The notes under the pieces were generated by a model. It did not search any database. It was not told where the DNA came from and worked only from the letters and a program-made list of their open reading frames with translations. 64,000 nt of DNA, taken from assembly GCA_016217545.1 (NCBI GenBank), contig JACRHT010000004.1:124001-188000 (forward strand), given 5' to 3'. A program made the translations under genes and the position numbers. Below, one piece after another: positions 46,013 through 53,408 of the stretch. Source of the stretch: Opitutia bacterium (GTDB taxonomy: Bacteria > Verrucomicrobiota > Verrucomicrobiia > Opitutales > Opitutaceae). Every line of letters starts with the position of its first letter. Within the stretch, counting starts at the first letter, position 1.

Positions 46013-46032
46013 TAGTGTTCACCTGAACACTA
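46013..46032. promoter_or_regulatory. LexA operator (SOS box) overlapping the lexA start codon
   Basis: Perfect palindrome TAGTGTTC-ACCT-GAACACTA. Its core TGTTC-N4-GAACA is the LexA-binding motif reported for Verrucomicrobia. The last A is the first base of the lexA ATG, so a bound repressor would block the start region itself. Sequence seen directly; the role is inferred from the motif and position. Confidence 0.88.
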
Positions 46033-46652
46033 TGGCAGACGCAACGCCTCTCACCGACCGACAGCGCAGGGTCCTCGACTTCGTCCACGCCCACCAACGC
46101 CAGCACGGCCACTACCCGAGCCTGCGCGAGATCTGCGCGCATTTCGGCTTCGCCAGTCCCTTCGCCGCCACGCGCCACCTCCGCGCGCTCGAAGCCAAGG
46201 GCGCCCTCGAACGCATCGCCGGCAAAGCCCGCGCCTTCGCCACGCCCGCCCATCGCCGTCGCGCCGCGCTCCTCGACATCCCGCTCTACGGCACCATCCC
46301 CGCCGGCTCGCCCACTGCCGCCGAACAGGAGCCCGACAGCTACGTCGCCGTCGACGCCACCTCGCTCGGCCTGCGCGCCACCAGCCGCGTCTTCGCCCTG
46401 CGCGTGCGCGGCGACTCGATGCAGGACGCCTCGATCCTCGACGGCGACCTCGTCTTCCTCACCCCGCGCGAGCCGCGTCCGCGCGACATCGTCGCCGCCC
46501 TCATCGACGGCGAATCCACGCTCAAGCGCTACCTCGTCCAACGCGGTCGCCCCTTTCTCCGCGCCGAAAACCCAAAGTATCCGGACCTCCTCCCCGCCAC
46601 CGAACTCCTCATCCAAGGCGTGATGGTCGGCCTCCTCCGCCGCCACGCCTGA
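46032..46652 (+). CDS. lexA: LexA repressor
   Basis: A 206-residue SOS repressor. It has an N-terminal winged HTH (TDRQRRVLDFVHAHQRQHGHYPSLREICAHFGFASPFA...) and a C-terminal S24 self-cleavage domain with cleavage site Ala91-Gly92, nucleophile Ser129 in RVRGDSMQD and Lys165 in ESTLKRYLV. On RecA-ssDNA activation it cleaves itself. It is preceded by its own operator and followed, after 320 bp, by imuA-imuB-dnaE2, so it most likely controls the mutasome as in other lexA-imu loci. No Shine-Dalgarno is visible before the ATG. Confidence 0.95.
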   Translation: MADATPLTDRQRRVLDFVHAHQRQHGHYPSLREICAHFGFASPFAATRHLRALEAKGALERIAGKARAFATPAHRRRAALLDIPLYGTIPAGSPTAAEQEPDSYVAVDATSLGLRATSRVFALRVRGDSMQDASILDGDLVFLTPREPRPRDIVAALIDGESTLKRYLVQRGRPFLRAENPKYPDLLPATELLIQGVMVGLLRRHA

Positions 46653-46972: not shown

Positions 46973-47620
46973 ATGTCCGCGTCCGATCAAATCGCCCGCC
47001 TGCGCCAGCAGCTCGCCGCCCGTTTCCCCACGGCGCAGCGCGCCGCCGGCCGTGCGCTGGCGACGGGCATCCCGGCCATCGATGAAACCACCGGCGGCGG
47101 CCTGCCGCTGAGCGCCGTCACCGAGATCGTCGGCGCCGCTCCGAGCTGCGGCATTTCTCTCCTCTGGGGCCAGCTCCTCGCCGCCACGCGCGCCGCGCAA
47201 ACCCGCGCCGCACTCATCGACGCATTCGACGAGTTCGATGCCACGTCCTTTCCCGCCGACCTGCTCGCGCACCTGATCTGGGCACGCTGCGGCGGCATCA
47301 CCGAAGCGCTCGCCGCGACCGATCTCCTCGCCCGCGACGCCAATTTCGGCCTCGTCCTCCTCGATCTCCGCCACGCGCCGCTGCGCGAACTCCGCCGCGT
47401 CCCCTCCACCTCGTGGTATCGCCTCCAACGCGCCGTCGAGCCCGCCGATCTCGCGCTCGTCGTCGCCACCCCCGCCGCCTGCGTGCCGAGCGCGCAACTC
47501 CGCCTCGAACTCGACCACGCCGCCACGCTCGACGAACTCGCCCGCGAACGCGCCGCACTCGCCGCCGCCCTCGCGCCCGTCCTGCAACGCCAGCGCCGCT
47601 CCCTCGCCGCGGCCGGTTGA
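46973..47620 (+). CDS. imuA: ImuA, RecA-like mutasome accessory protein
   Basis: A 215-residue RecA/SulA-superfamily protein that works with ImuB and DnaE2 in damage-induced mutagenesis. The fold pattern is ATGIPAIDETTGGGLPLSAVTEIVGAAPSCGISLLWGQLL. The P-loop position reads GAAPSCGIS, so Walker A is degenerate, as is usual in ImuA. Then come FGLVLLDLRHAPLRELRRVPSTSWYRLQRAVEPADLALVVATPAACVPSAQLRLEL. Three bases separate its stop from the imuB ATG. Confidence 0.9.
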   Translation: MSASDQIARLRQQLAARFPTAQRAAGRALATGIPAIDETTGGGLPLSAVTEIVGAAPSCGISLLWGQLLAATRAAQTRAALIDAFDEFDATSFPADLLAHLIWARCGGITEALAATDLLARDANFGLVLLDLRHAPLRELRRVPSTSWYRLQRAVEPADLALVVATPAACVPSAQLRLELDHAATLDELARERAALAAALAPVLQRQRRSLAAAG

Positions 47621-47623
47621 GCC

Positions 47624-49174
47624 ATGTTCGCCGTCCTCCACCTTGCCGGCTTCGCCCTGCAAGCGGTTCTCCGCGCCGAGTCCGCCACGGCCACCGCCTA
47701 CCGCGACCGTCCCGCCGCGCTCTTTAGCGGCACCACGAAAAAATCCGCCGTGCTCATGCTCAACGCCTCCGCCCTTGCCGTCGGCGTCGAGCCGGGCATG
47801 AGCGCTCCGCAAGCCATCGCACGCTGCGCCGACCTCCTCATCCGCTCGCCGCTCGCCGATGCCGAAGCCGACGCGCGCGCCGCGCTGCTCGCCGCGGCCT
47901 TCACGGTCTCCCCGCACGTCGAAGCCACCGCTCCCGGCATCGTAACAATCGACGCCCGCGGCCTCTCTTCCTCTGTCCGTGTTTCCGCCTGCGAAGCCGC
48001 ACTCGCACGCCTCGCCCTGCTCGGCCTCTTCGGCACCGCCGGCCTCGCGCGCACGCCCCTGATCGCCCTCTACGCCGCGCGGAATCGTTCTCGTTCTTTT
48101 GCTCCTTCTCGTTCTCTCGAATCGCACCGGATTGAGAACGAGGAACGAAAACGAGAGGCTGCAATCTGCGAAATCCCGACCAATCCCTCCGCCGAATCCT
48201 CCTTCCTCAGTCCACTCCCGCTCGCGACCGCGGAACCTGACACCGAAATCGCCGGCGTCCTCCACGCCTGGGGCCTGCGCACGCTCGGCGATCTCACGCG
48301 CCTCACGCGTGATGACCTCGGCCGACGCCTCGGCACCGCCGGCACCGCACTCTGGGATCGCGCCCGCGGCGGCGAGCCGCGTCCGCTGCATCTCGTCCCT
48401 CCGCCGCAGGAGTTCGTCGCTGCGATGGAGTTCGAGGACGCGTTCGAGACGCTCGAGCCCCTGCTGTTCATCCTCCGGCGCTTTCTCGATCGCCTGACGC
48501 TCGAGCTGGAAGCCGCGCACTTCGTGGCCGTCGAACTCGACCTCACGCTCATGCTCGCCGACGACACCGCGCACGCCCGCTCCTTCCGACTGCCGGAGCC
48601 GACGCGCGACCTCGAGATCCTCTTCCGCACGCTGCACACGCATCTCGAATCCGTGCGCACCGACTCGCCGATCGTCGCCGCGCGCCTGCGCGTCACACCC
48701 GCACGACCGCTCGTGCGCCAGCACGGACTCTTTGACACCGGCCTGCGCGATCCGCACGGCTTTGCGGAAACCCTCGCGCGCGTCGTGGCCCTTGTCGGCT
48801 CCGACCGCGTCGGCACACCTCAACTCGAGGACACGCACCGACCCGACGCCATAAAGCTCGTGCCGCCGCACGCGGTGATTCCACCCGCCGCGCCTGCTCC
48901 CGTGCAACCCGTGGTCGGCCGGCCGCTGCGCCGTTTCCGCCCGCCGCTCCCCGCGCGTTTCGAGATGAGCGAAGGCCAGCCGACGTTCCTCTGGACCGAG
49001 CGCGTGCAAGGCACCATCGCGGGCCATCTCGGCCCGTGGTGCAGCAGCGGCGAGTGGTGGCAGGCCGACCGCATCTGGAGCCGCGAGGAGTGGGATCTCG
49101 CCCTCGTGGACGGCGGCGTTTACCGCATCTGTCGCACGGCGGAGGGCTGGTTCCTCGAGGGTGAATACGACTGA
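47624..49174 (+). CDS. imuB: ImuB, Y-family polymerase-like mutasome protein, with a repeat-encoded insertion
   Basis: A 516-residue catalytically inactive Y-family (DinB-like) protein that links the beta clamp and DnaE2. The palm starts MFAVLHLAGFALQAVLRAE; the first catalytic acid is replaced (HLAGF), as known for ImuB. LSPLPLATAEPDTEIAGVLHAWGLRTLGDLTRL is the HhH/thumb region, and the C-terminal part has the LPARFEMSEGQP...ERVQGTIAGHLGPWCSSGEWW...YRICRTAEGWFLEGEYD domain. Between LIALYAAR and FLSPLPL lies a basic linker of about 40 residues (152-192), part of which is translated from an inverted repeat at 48085-48157. Stop and next start are three bases apart. Confidence 0.92.
   Translation: MFAVLHLAGFALQAVLRAESATATAYRDRPAALFSGTTKKSAVLMLNASALAVGVEPGMSAPQAIARCADLLIRSPLADAEADARAALLAAAFTVSPHVEATAPGIVTIDARGLSSSVRVSACEAALARLALLGLFGTAGLARTPLIALYAARNRSRSFAPSRSLESHRIENEERKREAAICEIPTNPSAESSFLSPLPLATAEPDTEIAGVLHAWGLRTLGDLTRLTRDDLGRRLGTAGTALWDRARGGEPRPLHLVPPPQEFVAAMEFEDAFETLEPLLFILRRFLDRLTLELEAAHFVAVELDLTLMLADDTAHARSFRLPEPTRDLEILFRTLHTHLESVRTDSPIVAARLRVTPARPLVRQHGLFDTGLRDPHGFAETLARVVALVGSDRVGTPQLEDTHRPDAIKLVPPHAVIPPAAPAPVQPVVGRPLRRFRPPLPARFEMSEGQPTFLWTERVQGTIAGHLGPWCSSGEWWQADRIWSREEWDLALVDGGVYRICRTAEGWFLEGEYD
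48085..48157. repeat. CGTTCTCGTTC-type inverted repeat inside imuB
   Basis: Left arm CGTTCTCGTTCTTTTGCTCC and CTTCTCGTTCTC (48086-48117). Right arm GAGAACGAGGAACGAAAACG and AGAG (48134-48157). The frame stays open and yields the Arg/Ser/Glu-rich peptide RSRSFAPSRSLESHRIENEE. Confidence 0.8.
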
Positions 49175-49177
49175 GCC

Positions 49178-52100
49178 ATGACAACCGATCGCGCCGCAGC
49201 CGCCAGTCGCCGGGAAGACACATGGTTCTTCGCGTTGCAGCCGCCCGCGCCGGCACGCGAAAAAATTTGCCAGTTACAGGACGAACTGGGCGCCCGCCAC
49301 GGCTTCTGCGGTTATCGAGTGAAACCGGAGAACCTGCACGTCAGTCTGCATGCCATCGGAGCGGGACGCACCTTGCCGGAAAGCAGACTTAAAGCCGCGT
49401 GCGCGGCCGCCAGTGCGTTGGTCTTCGAGTCGTTCGAATTCACGCTCGACCAGGCCCGCAGCTTCACGAACAAGCGGGATAAAAAGCCGTTCGTGCTTTC
49501 CGCCGACGGAGCCAGCGCCGCACTGAAGCCGTTCCACCAGACCCTGGGCGCAGCGCTGGAGCAGCACGGCGCCGGTGATCTTGTCGGTTCCAGCTTCACG
49601 CCTCATCTCACGCTGTTCTGGGAACACGCGCTGATCGAGCGGCACGCCGTGCCGCCGATCCGCTGGACGGTGGCCGAATTCGTGCTCGTGCACAGCCACA
49701 CTGGCAAAGCCATCCACGAAGTCGTCGGGCGCTGGCCGCTGCGCCAATATGGCGACTCGCGGTCTGCGCTTATCTCCCGCGCCAAAAAATACGCTCCGGC
49801 TTACGTCGAGCTGCACGCGCGCAGCGCCTTCAGCTTTCTCCGCGGCGCTTCGCTGCCGGAGGACTACGTGAAGAGCGCCGTGGAGAACGCGCAGCTGCCC
49901 GCCGTCGCCCTGCTCGATCGCGACGGCGTCTACGGCGCGCCGCGCTTCTACGGCAGCGCGCAGGAAAACAAGTTTGCCGTGCGTCCGCGCGTCGGAGCCG
50001 AGATCACGATGGAGGACGGCACCGTCGTGCCGCTACTCGTCGCCAATCGCACCGGCTACCAAAACCTTTGCCAGCTCATCACCGAGGCGAAGATGACCGC
50101 GCGCAGCGCCGCACCGGCTGCCAGTCGGCCGTCCGAAGTCTGCCGGCCGGCAGTCGGCGCTGCTCCGTCCGACCGCAAGCGCCCGTGCTTCGCTACGTGG
50201 GAGGAGCTGGCGCGCTTTTCCGGGGGCCTCATCGCGTTCACGGGCGACGAGGAAGGGCCGGTGCGCACGGCGTGGCGCACGCTCGGGACGACGGCCGCCG
50301 GGGCCGCGCTGGAGAAACTCACCGCCATTTTCGGGCGCGAAACCGATCCGGCGCGCGCGCGGCTCTTCGTCGAACTGCAACGTCATCAAATTCGCGGCGA
50401 AGATCGCGAAGTTGCCTTCCTGCGCGACCTGGCTGCGGCCCACCGGCTTCCACTGCTCGCCACCGGCGGAGTCAACTATGCCGTGCCCGAGCATCACATC
50501 GTCGCGGACGTTTTCACCTGCCTGCGCCATCACACCACGCTCGATGCGGCGGGTCGCCTGCTTGAAATCAACTCCCGACGCGGCCTGAAATCCGCGCGCG
50601 AAATGCAGGGGCTGTTTCGCGACTTGCCGGAAGCCGTCGCCAACGCCGTGCGCCTCGAGCAACGGCTCGAGTTCACCTTGCAGAACCTCGGCTACCAGTT
50701 TCCCGCCTATTCCACGCCGAACGGCGAGGACATGGACGCCTACCTGCGTCGCATCACCTTCGAGGCCGCGCGCCGGAAAGTTAAACCCCAGGAGTGGTCG
50801 GCGAAGTGGGACGCGCAACTCAACCGCGAACTCGAGCTCATCGCCCGCCTGAAATTCTCCGGCTATTTTCTGATCGTCTGGGACATTTGCCAGTGGGCTC
50901 GGCAGCAAAGCATCCTCGTGCAAGGCCGTGGCAGCGCCGCCAACAGCGCCGTCTGCTACGTGCTCGGGATCACGGCGGTCGACCCGATCAAGAACCAGCT
51001 TCTCTTCGATCGCTTCCTGAACGACAGCCGCGTCGGACCCGACGGCAATCCCTCGTGGCCGGACATCGATCTCGACTTCCCCAGCGGTGACCGGCGCGAG
51101 CGCGTCATCCAGGAAGTCTACGCGCGTTACGGCCGGCGCGGCGCGGCGATGACGGCCAACGTCATCACCTATCGCGGCCGCAGCACCATTCGCGAAGTCG
51201 GCAAGGTGCTCGGCTTCGGCGACGATGCGCTCGACCGTTTCTCGAGCCTCTATGCCAACGGCGATTTTCCGGAGACGCTCGATCTCCAGGAGCAGCTTCG
51301 TCTCTCCGGCATCGCCGATCACCATCCGCGCGCCGAGGCGCTGGTGCGGCTGCAGCACTATTTCCGCCGCGCCCTCCCGCGCCACCTCGGCCAGCACTCC
51401 GGCGGCATGGTCATCTCCCAGCACCAGCTCGACAAAGTCGTCCCGCTCGAGCCCGCCACGATGCCCGACCGCAGCGTCTGCCAATGGGACAAGGACGACT
51501 GCGAGAATCTCGGCATCGTGAAGATCGACTTTCTCGGACTCGGGATGATGGCGGTGCTGCAGGACAGCTTCGAACTCTGCACCGGTCAGGGCGACACTCC
51601 GCGCAGCTTCGACGACATCCCTCCCGACGACCCGGAAACCTACGAAAAAATCCGCGCCGCCGACACGGTGGGAGTTTTCCAGATCGAAAGCCGCGCGCAG
51701 ATGGCAACGCTGCCGCGCTTCAAGCCGCGCGTTCTCTACGATCTCGCGATGCAGGTTGCCATCATCCGCCCCGGCCCGATCACCGGCAATCTCGTGCATC
51801 CCCTCATCCGCCGTCGCGATGGCAAGGAAGCGGTCGACTACATCCACCCCAGCGTGGCCCACATCGTGGAGCCGATTCTCCAGCGCACCAAGGGCGTGAT
51901 CCTGTTCCAGGAGCAGATGCTGCAGCTCGCGATCCAGCTCGCGAAATTCACCGGCGGCGAAGCCGAGGAACTGCGCCGCGCCATGGGATTCACCAAAGAC
52001 CCCGAGCGGCTCCCTCGTTCGATGGAAAAACTGACGCTCGCACTGCGGCGGCAGCACTACAACGAGGAGGTCGTGCAAAAAGTCGTCCAAGCCACCACGA

Positions 52101-53038
52101 CGTTCTCCGCCTACGGTTTTCCCGAGTCTCATGCCATCGGCTTCGCGATGCTCGCCTACTTCAGCACGTGGCTGAAGATTCACCGCCCCGCGGCATTCTA
52201 CGCCAGTCTGCTCAACAATCAGCCGATGGGATTTTACTCACCCGCGACGCTCATTCAGGATGGCCGGCGTCACGGCCTCGTGGCTCATCCCGTTTGCGTG
52301 CAGCACTCGGTGTGGGACTGCACGGTCGAGACGGCGCAAAGCATCCGCATCGGCCTGCGTTTCGTGAAAGGTCTCCGCGAAGCCACCGCGCGCGCGATGC
52401 TCGCCGCGCGGCGGGACGGACCGTTCGCCTCGCTCGCCGACTTCCTGCGCCGCACGAATCTCCCTGCCTCAGATCGGCGCGCGCTCGCCACCGTCGGCGC
52501 GCTCAACGCCCTGTCGCACGATCGGCGCGCCGCCCTCTGGCAAATCGAGGCCGCGTGGTCCGACGACGAAGCATTGTTCAAGCAGTTCGCCGACGCTTAT
52601 CGCGAGGGTTCGCCGCTCGCACGGATGTCGCCGGTTGAGGAAGTCCAGGCCGACTTCGCCGGACTCGGCCTCACGACCGAGGAACACCCGATGGCCGCGC
52701 TGCGCTCGCAATTGCACGGCGTCACTCAGGCGAGTCAGTTGAAAGAGACCCCAGACGGCGCCCGCGTGACCATCGCCGGCCCCGTGATCTGCCGCCAGCG
52801 ACCCGGCACGGCGAAGGGTTTCGTTTTCATCAGTCTCGAGGACGAGACGGGCATAGCCAACGCCGTCGTGCTGCCGCAGCTCTTCGAGCGCCTCCGGCTG
52901 GTCATCACGCAGGAACCGTCGCTGCGCATCACCGGTCCCCTGCAAAACGTCTCCGGCGTGCAGCACGTGAAAGCGGAGGTCATCGAGCCGCTGCGCTGCG
53001 CCACGCTGCCCGCGCAGGCCTCGCACGATTTCCACTGA
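49178..53038 (+). CDS. dnaE2: Error-prone DNA polymerase DnaE2 with an N-terminal 2H phosphoesterase domain
   Basis: 1286 residues against about 1050-1090 for ordinary DnaE2. Residues about 13-190 are a complete LigT/ThpR-like 2H phosphoesterase domain: motif 1 HVSL (His54), motif 2 HLTL (His143), and the terminal strand FVLVHSHTGK...VVGRWPL. Residues about 205-1286 are DnaE2: a PHP domain with YVELHARSAFSFLRGAS (metal-site HxH lost, as in DnaE2), palm acids Asp629/Asp631/Asp633 in PDIDLDF, RAHLGQHSGG-like RHLGQHSGGMV, and a C-terminal OB domain (VTIAGPVICRQRPGTAKGFVFISLEDETG). No ATG, GTG or TTG in frame stands at the polymerase N-terminus, so the fusion is likely translated as one chain. 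Last gene of lexA-imuA-imuB-dnaE2. Confidence 0.93.
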   Translation: MTTDRAAAASRREDTWFFALQPPAPAREKICQLQDELGARHGFCGYRVKPENLHVSLHAIGAGRTLPESRLKAACAAASALVFESFEFTLDQARSFTNKRDKKPFVLSADGASAALKPFHQTLGAALEQHGAGDLVGSSFTPHLTLFWEHALIERHAVPPIRWTVAEFVLVHSHTGKAIHEVVGRWPLRQYGDSRSALISRAKKYAPAYVELHARSAFSFLRGASLPEDYVKSAVENAQLPAVALLDRDGVYGAPRFYGSAQENKFAVRPRVGAEITMEDGTVVPLLVANRTGYQNLCQLITEAKMTARSAAPAASRPSEVCRPAVGAAPSDRKRPCFATWEELARFSGGLIAFTGDEEGPVRTAWRTLGTTAAGAALEKLTAIFGRETDPARARLFVELQRHQIRGEDREVAFLRDLAAAHRLPLLATGGVNYAVPEHHIVADVFTCLRHHTTLDAAGRLLEINSRRGLKSAREMQGLFRDLPEAVANAVRLEQRLEFTLQNLGYQFPAYSTPNGEDMDAYLRRITFEAARRKVKPQEWSAKWDAQLNRELELIARLKFSGYFLIVWDICQWARQQSILVQGRGSAANSAVCYVLGITAVDPIKNQLLFDRFLNDSRVGPDGNPSWPDIDLDFPSGDRRERVIQEVYARYGRRGAAMTANVITYRGRSTIREVGKVLGFGDDALDRFSSLYANGDFPETLDLQEQLRLSGIADHHPRAEALVRLQHYFRRALPRHLGQHSGGMVISQHQLDKVVPLEPATMPDRSVCQWDKDDCENLGIVKIDFLGLGMMAVLQDSFELCTGQGDTPRSFDDIPPDDPETYEKIRAADTVGVFQIESRAQMATLPRFKPRVLYDLAMQVAIIRPGPITGNLVHPLIRRRDGKEAVDYIHPSVAHIVEPILQRTKGVILFQEQMLQLAIQLAKFTGGEAEELRRAMGFTKDPERLPRSMEKLTLALRRQHYNEEVVQKVVQATTTFSAYGFPESHAIGFAMLAYFSTWLKIHRPAAFYASLLNNQPMGFYSPATLIQDGRRHGLVAHPVCVQHSVWDCTVETAQSIRIGLRFVKGLREATARAMLAARRDGPFASLADFLRRTNLPASDRRALATVGALNALSHDRRAALWQIEAAWSDDEALFKQFADAYREGSPLARMSPVEEVQADFAGLGLTTEEHPMAALRSQLHGVTQASQLKETPDGARVTIAGPVICRQRPGTAKGFVFISLEDETGIANAVVLPQLFERLRLVITQEPSLRITGPLQNVSGVQHVKAEVIEPLRCATLPAQASHDFH

Positions 53039-53105: not shown

Positions 53106-53408
53106 TTAATCGCGCGGCACCACGATCTCGAGTTTCACCCGGCATCCCAGCGCCGCGGCGAGCCGCGTCAGCGTGTTCAACGTCAGCGAGGTGTTCAGCG
53201 GATCGAGCACGCGATTCACCGCCGCGCGACTCGTGCCGAGCGTGCGTGCGAGCTCCGAGACCGACATGTCGAGGCGTTCCATGCGGTGCATCAGCGTCGT
53301 GGCGATGACTCGCTTCAACGCGGTCGCCTCGACATCGCTGTAGATGCCCTCTTCACGCAGGCGTTCGGTCGATGTCTCCTCGAAACGATGGCGCTTGTCC
53401 TGTTCCAT
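53106..53408 (-). CDS. XRE-type HTH regulator
   Basis: 100 residues. The C-terminal half is a Cro/C1-type helix-turn-helix (MSVSELARTLGTSRAAVNRVLDPLNTSLTLNTLTRLAAALG) followed by RVKLEIVVPRD. The N-terminal part is charged (EQDKRHRFEETSTERLREEG). This layout is that of antitoxin-like or small regulatory XRE proteins. No toxin gene is adjacent on the same strand, so a solitary regulator is more likely. It is convergent with dnaE2. Confidence 0.82.
   Translation of the reverse strand: MEQDKRHRFEETSTERLREEGIYSDVEATALKRVIATTLMHRMERLDMSVSELARTLGTSRAAVNRVLDPLNTSLTLNTLTRLAAALGCRVKLEIVVPRD

What the first reader, a model, noticed from the sequence alone, without database searches (positions are those of the whole stretch)
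49178..49800. 2H phosphoesterase domain fused to the error-prone polymerase DnaE2
Seen: the first roughly 200 residues of this DnaE2 form a full LigT/ThpR-type 2H domain with both catalytic motifs (HVSL with His54, HLTL with His143) and the closing VVGRWPL strand. The polymerase homology begins near residue 205 without any in-frame ATG, GTG or TTG at that point. 2H enzymes act on 2',5' or 2',3'-cyclic phosphate ends of RNA or on nucleotide derivatives. Coupling this activity to the SOS mutasome suggests end-processing of RNA or ribonucleotide-containing damage at stalled forks, or a regulatory small-molecule activity. I know of no described ImuABC system with such a domain; novelty must be checked.
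Basis: partly seen in the sequence, partly recalled or inferred. Interest (0 to 1): 0.85.

Follow-up and report, generated by a model that had tools for sequence, protein, structure and literature searches.

The report
RNA-end enzyme fused to mutagenic polymerase
In a few soil and groundwater bacteria, an enzyme of the kind that trims RNA-type phosphate ends is built into, or encoded right beside, the error-prone DNA polymerase switched on by DNA damage, which points to an undescribed extra component of the bacterial mutation machinery.

Summary
ORF 49178-53038 (1286 aa) is one uninterrupted frame: a LigT-like 2H phosphoesterase (residues ~14-190; His54 and His143 in HxS/HxT motifs) fused to a complete DnaE2 (from residue 206) in a lexA-imuA-imuB-dnaE2 cassette behind a perfect LexA box. 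It is no assembly error: two other genomes carry the same fusion (82% and 71% identity overall), and the 2H domain is under purifying selection.

The fusion is one form of a wider association. In Opitutaceae the DnaE2s with a 2H form one clade (100/100): three fused, one with a separate 2H gene between imuB and dnaE2, one with it directly after dnaE2. A distant lineage of the class also has imuA-imuB-dnaE2-2H. One unlinked 2H gene has a perfect LexA box 3 bp before its ATG. Over half of this 2H subfamily (14 of 25) start with a Q[LF]x[LF] peptide resembling a beta-clamp-binding motif; the window's fusion lacks it.

Best reading: a damage-induced 2H subfamily brought to the clamp/mutasome by its own peptide or by fusion, probably acting on 2'- or 2',3'-phosphate (ribo-type) 3' ends. 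The SOS/mutasome link is well supported; substrate and clamp binding are inferred. New variant of a known kind.

The parts
46016..46029 (+). LexA box TGTTCACCTGAACA (TGTTC-N4-GAACA), 2 bp before the lexA ATG
   Evidence: Perfect match, the only one in the window; same-type boxes precede the cassettes of G035, G388, G489, G694 and G984
46032..46652 (+). lexA
   Evidence: Pfam LexA_DNA_bind 8.6e-21 and Peptidase_S24 1.5e-21
46973..47620 (+). imuA
   Evidence: NCBIfam ImuA_translesion E 2.6e-9, below its curated cutoff; position between lexA and imuB
47624..49174 (+). imuB, inactive Y-family partner
   Evidence: Pfam IMS and IMS_C above cutoffs
48719..48733 (+). QHGLF in ImuB (residues 366-370), fits the clamp-binding consensus QxxLF
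   Evidence: Sequence; consensus from PMC12309361
49178..53038 (+). 2H-DnaE2 fusion gene, 1286 aa
   Evidence: Open frame; orthologous fusions in G006 and G035
49178..49747 (+). LigT-like 2H phosphoesterase domain (residues 1-190; globular 14-190)
   Evidence: Pfam LigT_PEase and 2_5_RNA_ligase2; model pLDDT 79.5, LigT Z about 19-20
49331..49348 (+). first catalytic motif NLHVSL, His54 codon 49337-49339
   Evidence: aligned with the LigT NLHLTL motif
49601..49621 (+). second catalytic motif PHLTLFW, His143 codon 49604-49606; Trp148 at the LigT Arg130 position
   Evidence: role of Arg130 from PMC5283653
49742..49792 (+). linker, residues 189-205, no in-frame start codon, no detectable constraint
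   Evidence: pLDDT under 50 from residue 194
49793..53035 (+). DnaE2 polymerase, residues 206-1286, with degenerate PHP metal site and intact PDIDLDF / VKIDFLGL motifs
   Evidence: PRK05672 1126 bits; alignments to Pol III alpha; motif positions

Best explanation
A distinct LigT-like 2H phosphoesterase subfamily in Verrucomicrobiota has become part of the SOS-induced ImuA-ImuB-DnaE2 mutasome. Standalone members appear to be targeted to the sliding clamp by a short N-terminal Q[LF]x[LF] peptide; in the window the enzyme is instead covalently attached to DnaE2, which reaches the clamp through ImuB (QHGLF), so the peptide could be lost. The most likely job is local repair of ribose-type blocked 3' ends (2',3'-cyclic phosphate or related phosphoesters left by ribonucleotide hydrolysis, topoisomerase incision or RNA-primer breakage) at stalled forks and gaps. 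LigT-type chemistry opens a 2',3'-cyclic phosphate to a 2'-phosphate and leaves a 3'-OH, the end a polymerase needs, and DnaE2 could then extend it. Shown here: the fusion, selection on it, cassette association in two lineages, one clade in Opitutaceae, LexA boxes, predicted LigT fold and catalytic residues. Inferred: catalysis, clamp binding, substrate and order of events.
For: Fusion in three assemblies with purifying selection. Cassette-linked 2H genes: upstream separate in G388, downstream in G489, downstream in G694 and G984. The five Opitutaceae DnaE2s with a 2H are one clade, 100/100. Perfect LexA box 3 bp before the unlinked G973 2H gene and a one-mismatch box before the G388 2H gene. 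Clamp-like peptide in the first 12 residues of 14 of 25 subfamily members against 2% of background ORFs. LigT fold, Z about 19-20, with aligned catalytic histidines. LigT and close relatives open cyclic phosphates to 2'-phosphate (PMC5283653, PMC5591277). Independent precedent: ligT-recA / cinA-ligT-recA operons in the Deinococcus radiation regulon (PMC5552922).
Against: No biochemistry. LigT Arg130, which holds the product phosphate, is Trp148 here and aromatic throughout the aligned subfamily, so substrate or product may differ. The clamp peptide is absent from the window and G006 fusions, degenerate in G035, and missing in 11 of 25 members. The peptide pattern was defined after it was seen, and the members are related. 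Most subfamily members (18 of 25) are not next to imu genes in the DNA fetched, and some of those genomes lack a DnaE2 above cutoff (G473, G700, G936, G944, G898), so the enzyme has a role beyond DnaE2. Whether DnaE2 can extend a 2'-phosphate end is unknown.
Confidence: 0.4

Rival explanations
1. The 2H domain hydrolyses a small nucleotide made during the damage response (a 2',3'-cyclic NMP, a cyclic-phosphate form of ADP-ribose, or a cyclic or 2'-5' oligonucleotide signal) and so tunes the response. Fusion and co-transcription only ensure matched expression.
For: Other 2H enzymes act on such molecules: LigT forms 2'-AMP from 2',3'-cAMP, plant CPDase cleaves ADP-ribose cyclic phosphate, and the fold search also reaches Acb1 and cGAMP phosphodiesterases. 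Deinococcus ligT shares an operon with cinA, a pyridine-nucleotide recycling enzyme.
Against: A diffusible-substrate enzyme needs neither fusion to a polymerase nor a clamp-like peptide. No signal synthase was noticed in the cassettes, though this was not searched for systematically.
Confidence: 0.2
2. The domain is mainly a binding or architectural module: it recognises RNA, primer ends or mutasome partners through the 2H groove, and catalysis is secondary or absent.
For: 2H-fold proteins without a known catalytic role appear in the fold list (AKAP18 central domain, mitoribosomal 2H proteins). Trp replaces Arg130. The PHP domain beside it is the modelled contact for ImuB-C (PMC12926913).
Against: Both catalytic His positions and the S/T partners are kept in all three fusions and nearly the whole subfamily, which binding alone would not require.
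Confidence: 0.2
3. The 2H enzyme repairs cellular RNA (tRNA or mRNA ends) damaged in the same stress and is simply co-regulated with the mutasome; the fusion is a nearly neutral by-product of adjacency.
For: 2H enzymes are RNA end-healing enzymes; G388 shows that one stop codon separates fused from unfused; the fusion is rare, 3 of 252 family genomes.
Against: The genome keeps an ordinary ThpR elsewhere; fused domains are constrained; the clamp-like peptide points to DNA.
Confidence: 0.15
4. Assembly or frameshift artefact joining two genes.
For: A relative (G388) has two genes in the same frame separated by one TGA.
Against: Three separate assemblies carry the fusion in two genera, with selection on the domain and no coding start between the parts in two of them.
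Confidence: 0.02

Closest known systems
ImuA-ImuB-DnaE2 mutasome (DnaE2A group of PMC12926913)
   Same: lexA, imuA, imuB, dnaE2 order, LexA box, DnaE2 with degenerate PHP site, ImuB clamp motif
   Different: DnaE2 carries an N-terminal 2H domain, or a 2H gene lies in the cassette; the passages read of the 2026 survey of DnaE2 associations mention no 2H or LigT partner
LigT/ThpR RNA 2',3'-cyclic phosphodiesterase (E. coli 4QAK, 5LDI)
   Same: 2H fold (Z about 19-20), both HxS/T motifs
   Different: Below the TIGR02258 cutoff (52.7-58.1 against 65.7), Trp at the Arg130 position, separate clade from the ThpRs tested (99/99), paralogue present in the same genome
Deinococcus LigT of the cinA-ligT-recA radiation-response operon
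   Same: 2H enzyme placed under DNA-damage control beside a recombination gene (PMC5552922)
   Different: Not linked to ImuB/DnaE2 and not fused; different regulator (DdrO, not LexA)
SRAP and standalone ImuB-C accessory genes of SOS operons
   Same: Extra genes recurrently encoded beside mutagenic polymerases (PMC3765255)
   Different: Unrelated folds and proposed functions; no 2H component mentioned in the passages read

Membership tests
2H phosphoesterase superfamily | Two HxS/T motifs in the characteristic bilobal fold | tested here: met
   His54-Val-Ser, His143-Leu-Thr; model matches LigT, Z about 19-20
2H phosphoesterase superfamily | Phosphodiesterase activity dependent on both His | not testable with these tools
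   Needs purified protein
ThpR (RNA 2',3'-cyclic phosphodiesterase, TIGR02258) | Score above curated cutoff 65.7 | tested here: not met
   52.7 (whole protein) and 58.1 bits (domain), while the genome's other copy scores 137
ThpR (RNA 2',3'-cyclic phosphodiesterase, TIGR02258) | Arg at the LigT Arg130 position | tested here: not met
   Trp148; Tyr or Trp across the aligned subfamily
DnaE2 / ImuC error-prone polymerase | DnaE2 family score and catalytic Asp motifs | tested here: met
   PRK05672 1126 bits over cutoff 939; PDIDLDF, VKIDFLGL
DnaE2 / ImuC error-prone polymerase | Deviating PHP active site | tested here: met
   ELHARS, LRG, LDRDG in place of the HxH, D and H metal ligands; rule from PMC12926913
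lexA-imuA-imuB-dnaE2 cassette | Gene order and LexA control | tested here: met
   imuA scored below its curated cutoff and is placed partly by position; control by LexA is read from the box only
Beta-clamp-binding protein | QL[S/D]LF or QxxLF / QLSLPL peptide | tested here: not met
   Absent from the N-terminus of the window's fusion; present in 14 of 25 subfamily members, mostly standalone; consensus from PMC12309361
Beta-clamp-binding protein | Measured binding to DnaN | not testable with these tools
   Needs peptide or protein binding assay

The most novel reading that the evidence does not exclude
DnaE2 mutasomes in these bacteria contain a dedicated ribo-end-opening enzyme: the 2H domain turns a 2',3'-cyclic-phosphate 3' end on DNA or an RNA primer into an extendable 3'-OH, so damage bypass can restart from broken ribonucleotide-containing ends; unfused relatives do the same from the sliding clamp.
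Probability: 0.3. Interest if true: 0.88.

Novelty: new variant of a known kind. Interest (0 to 1): 0.68.

Why it matters
The ImuA-ImuB-DnaE2 mutasome drives damage-induced mutation, including drug-resistance mutations in mycobacteria, and its composition is still being worked out. A phosphoesterase fused to the polymerase, with separate genes in the same operon elsewhere and a LexA box before an unlinked copy, names a new candidate component with clear catalytic residues to test. It would also give a physiological setting for LigT-type 2H enzymes, whose biological role is described as open (PMC5283653), and would connect to the unexplained ligT gene in the Deinococcus radiation regulon.

Tried and rejected
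Looked for a misassembly: rejected, since two other genome assemblies share the fusion.

Two-gene explanation: G388 does have two genes in the same frame with one TGA between them, but its DnaE2 is sister to the fused G035 (99/97). The 2H tree places G388 outside the fused trio, so whether G388 is a fission or the fusion arose twice is left open.

In-frame stops reported upstream of DnaE2 in G025, G033, G034, G028, G019 and G020 first looked like adjacent 2H genes; no 2H match lies there, and the readings are mostly imuB read in another frame.

Mobile origin: no relatives in phage records or in a viral-contig scan with one query; plasmid relatives are Paracoccus genes (plus one Legionella ThpR), and the two Paracoccus regions with annotation lie in lactate or biotin neighbourhoods, not SOS.

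2H-PHP packing: the 521-residue model was too poor beyond residue 190 to use (mean pLDDT 45.8).

Only one scan of the GTDB contig collection was available; it used two peptide patterns from the three fusions and found only G006 and G035, so distant fusions in other phyla may have been missed.

Literature: no paper in the held library contains both DnaE2 and 2H phosphoesterase, nor RNA ligase with ImuB, LexA and sliding clamp; subscription papers and preprints are not held.

Full report
What is there. The frame 49178-53038 is open throughout and encodes 1286 residues. Residues 206-1286 are a full DnaE2 (PRK05672, 1126 bits, cutoff 939), and the first 207 residues match the 2H families LigT_PEase and 2_5_RNA_ligase2 at E about 5e-11. 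The gene starts 3 bp after the imuB stop and is the last of a lexA-imuA-imuB-dnaE2 cassette whose lexA ATG lies 2 bp after a perfect TGTTC-N4-GAACA box. The imuA match (E 2.6e-9) is below its curated cutoff and rests partly on position.

The domain. AlphaFold2 with three sequences gives pLDDT 79.5. The best solved matches are E. coli LigT (Foldseek E about 2e-10; VIA-align Z 18.6-19.7 over about 165 residues, 24-26% identity). Profile alignment places His54 and His143 on the two LigT catalytic motifs. One active-site residue differs: the LigT Arg130 that holds the product phosphate (PMC5283653) is Trp148 here and Tyr or Trp in the aligned relatives. The genome also has an ordinary ThpR elsewhere (TIGR02258 137 bits against 58 for the fused domain), and a tree separates the two groups at 99/99. 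So this is a 2H phosphoesterase of the LigT-like branch, but not ThpR.

It is real and maintained. The same fusion occurs in G006 (GenBank JACPIT010000006.1, groundwater Opitutia) and G035 (CALFNN010000006.1, uncultured Opitutaceae), at 82% and 71% identity overall. Nei-Gojobori dN/dS is 0.19-0.29 for the 2H domain and 0.14-0.23 for the polymerase; synonymous sites in the 2H domain are close to saturation, so the values are rough. The linker shows no constraint. No in-frame ATG, GTG or TTG lies between the RWPL strand and the PHP domain in G000 and G006; G035 has one GTG.

The wider association. Searching 252 genomes of the family with the 2H profile gave six hits. Besides the three fusions, G388 has lexA-imuA-imuB-2H-dnaE2 with the 2H as a separate gene in the dnaE2 frame, ended by a single TGA right after the RWPL strand, and G489 has lexA-imuA-imuB-dnaE2-2H with 11 bp between the last two genes. 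In the DnaE2 tree the five cassette-linked Opitutaceae sequences are one clade at 100/100, nested among relatives whose dnaE2 has no 2H match beside it, so the partnership was probably gained once and rearranged. G035 (fused) and G388 (separate) are sisters in that tree (99/97), which suggests either fission in G388 or two fusions; the 2H tree groups the three fused domains instead (99/95), so this stays open.

A second lineage. A phylum-wide sample and a sample of the order of G694 found about twenty further members. Two of them, G694 and G984, encode imuA-imuB-dnaE2-2H. The others examined have no imu genes within the roughly 8 kb fetched on each side, less where contigs end. These genomes share the class, not the order, with the window. 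The relation of the two cassette groups to each other is not resolved: several forks of the 2H tree are open and many unlinked rows lie among them.

Regulation. Perfect LexA boxes in the fetched loci occur before the lexA or imuA gene of the G035, G388, G489, G694 and G984 cassettes, and once more directly before the ATG of an unlinked 2H gene in G973 (TGTTCATTTGAACA, 3 bp before ATG). With ten fixed bases a chance box within 370 bp has a probability near 0.0004 per gene (my arithmetic), about 0.01 over the 25 genes examined. G388 has a one-mismatch box before its 2H gene. This supports SOS control of the enzyme itself, in one or two cases.

A clamp-like peptide. Fourteen of 25 members have Q[LF]x[LF] in the first 12 residues, such as MAEQLLLPGM (G694 cassette), MTGQLSLPGF (G489 cassette), MDEQLLLFDM and MSDQLELFGG, followed by a variable linker; 2% of background ORFs do. 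These resemble the clamp-binding consensus QL[S/D]LF / QxxLF and the Hda peptide QLSLPL (PMC12309361). The pattern was chosen after it was seen, the start was taken as the last Met before the domain (the background used the first Met of each frame), and members are related, so the binomial value is only indicative; clustering at 50% identity leaves 11 of 18 clusters with the peptide. The window and G006 fusions lack it and G035 has a degenerate METQLSFDAP. A simple reading is that covalent attachment to DnaE2, with ImuB supplying QHGLF, made it dispensable.

How it may work. LigT and close structural relatives open 2',3'-cyclic phosphates to a 2'-phosphate (PMC5283653, PMC5591277), which frees the 3'-OH. 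Hydrolysis or topoisomerase cleavage at a ribonucleotide in DNA is known to leave 2',3'-cyclic phosphate ends (general knowledge, not tested here). A 2H enzyme at the clamp or on the polymerase could convert such ends to primers. This is inference, and the Arg130 replacement leaves room for another substrate. Rivals are small-molecule hydrolysis, a binding role, or RNA repair co-regulated with mutagenesis.

What is known. The Feb 2026 survey of bacterial polymerases and DnaE2 associations (PMC12926913) states that DnaE2 PHP sites are degenerate as a rule and that PHP contacts ImuB-C in a model; its passages searched do not mention a 2H or RNA-ligase partner. No held paper contains DnaE2 with 2H phosphoesterase. 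The nearest precedent is the radiation-induced cinA-ligT-recA operon of Deinococcus (PMC5552922, PMC2669436). The finding is therefore a new architecture and a new recurrent partner of a known system.

Noticed in passing
L095 8471-8484 (G973): Perfect LexA box 3 bp before the ATG of an unlinked 2H gene; the nearest divergent gene starts roughly 150 bp or more away.
   Followed up: partly
L064 7319-7894 (G700): A standalone 2H protein without the N-terminal peptide ends in KLVQSELF, which fits QxxLF at the extreme C-terminus.
   Followed up: no
G694 and G984 (L063, L093): These genomes carry two DnaE2 genes each; only one is in the imuA-imuB-dnaE2-2H cassette. The G694 cassette DnaE2 is matched in two pieces and scores below the DnaE2 cutoff, possibly a frameshift.
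   Followed up: no
L045 3210-3223 (G388): TGTTTTTTTGAACA, one mismatch from the LexA box, between imuB and the separate 2H gene, suggesting a second LexA-controlled promoter inside the cassette.
   Followed up: partly
L007 and L008 (G008, G009): Two genomes placed in the window's genus have DnaE2 without any 2H match upstream, so the partnership varies within a genus.
   Followed up: partly
53106-53408, - strand: Small helix-turn-helix (XRE-type) gene convergent with dnaE2.
   Followed up: no
L052 5863-6429 and L051 5869-6429 (Paracoccus plasmids): Distant 2H relatives beside a GntR-family regulator and near biotin or lactate genes, not SOS genes.
   Followed up: partly
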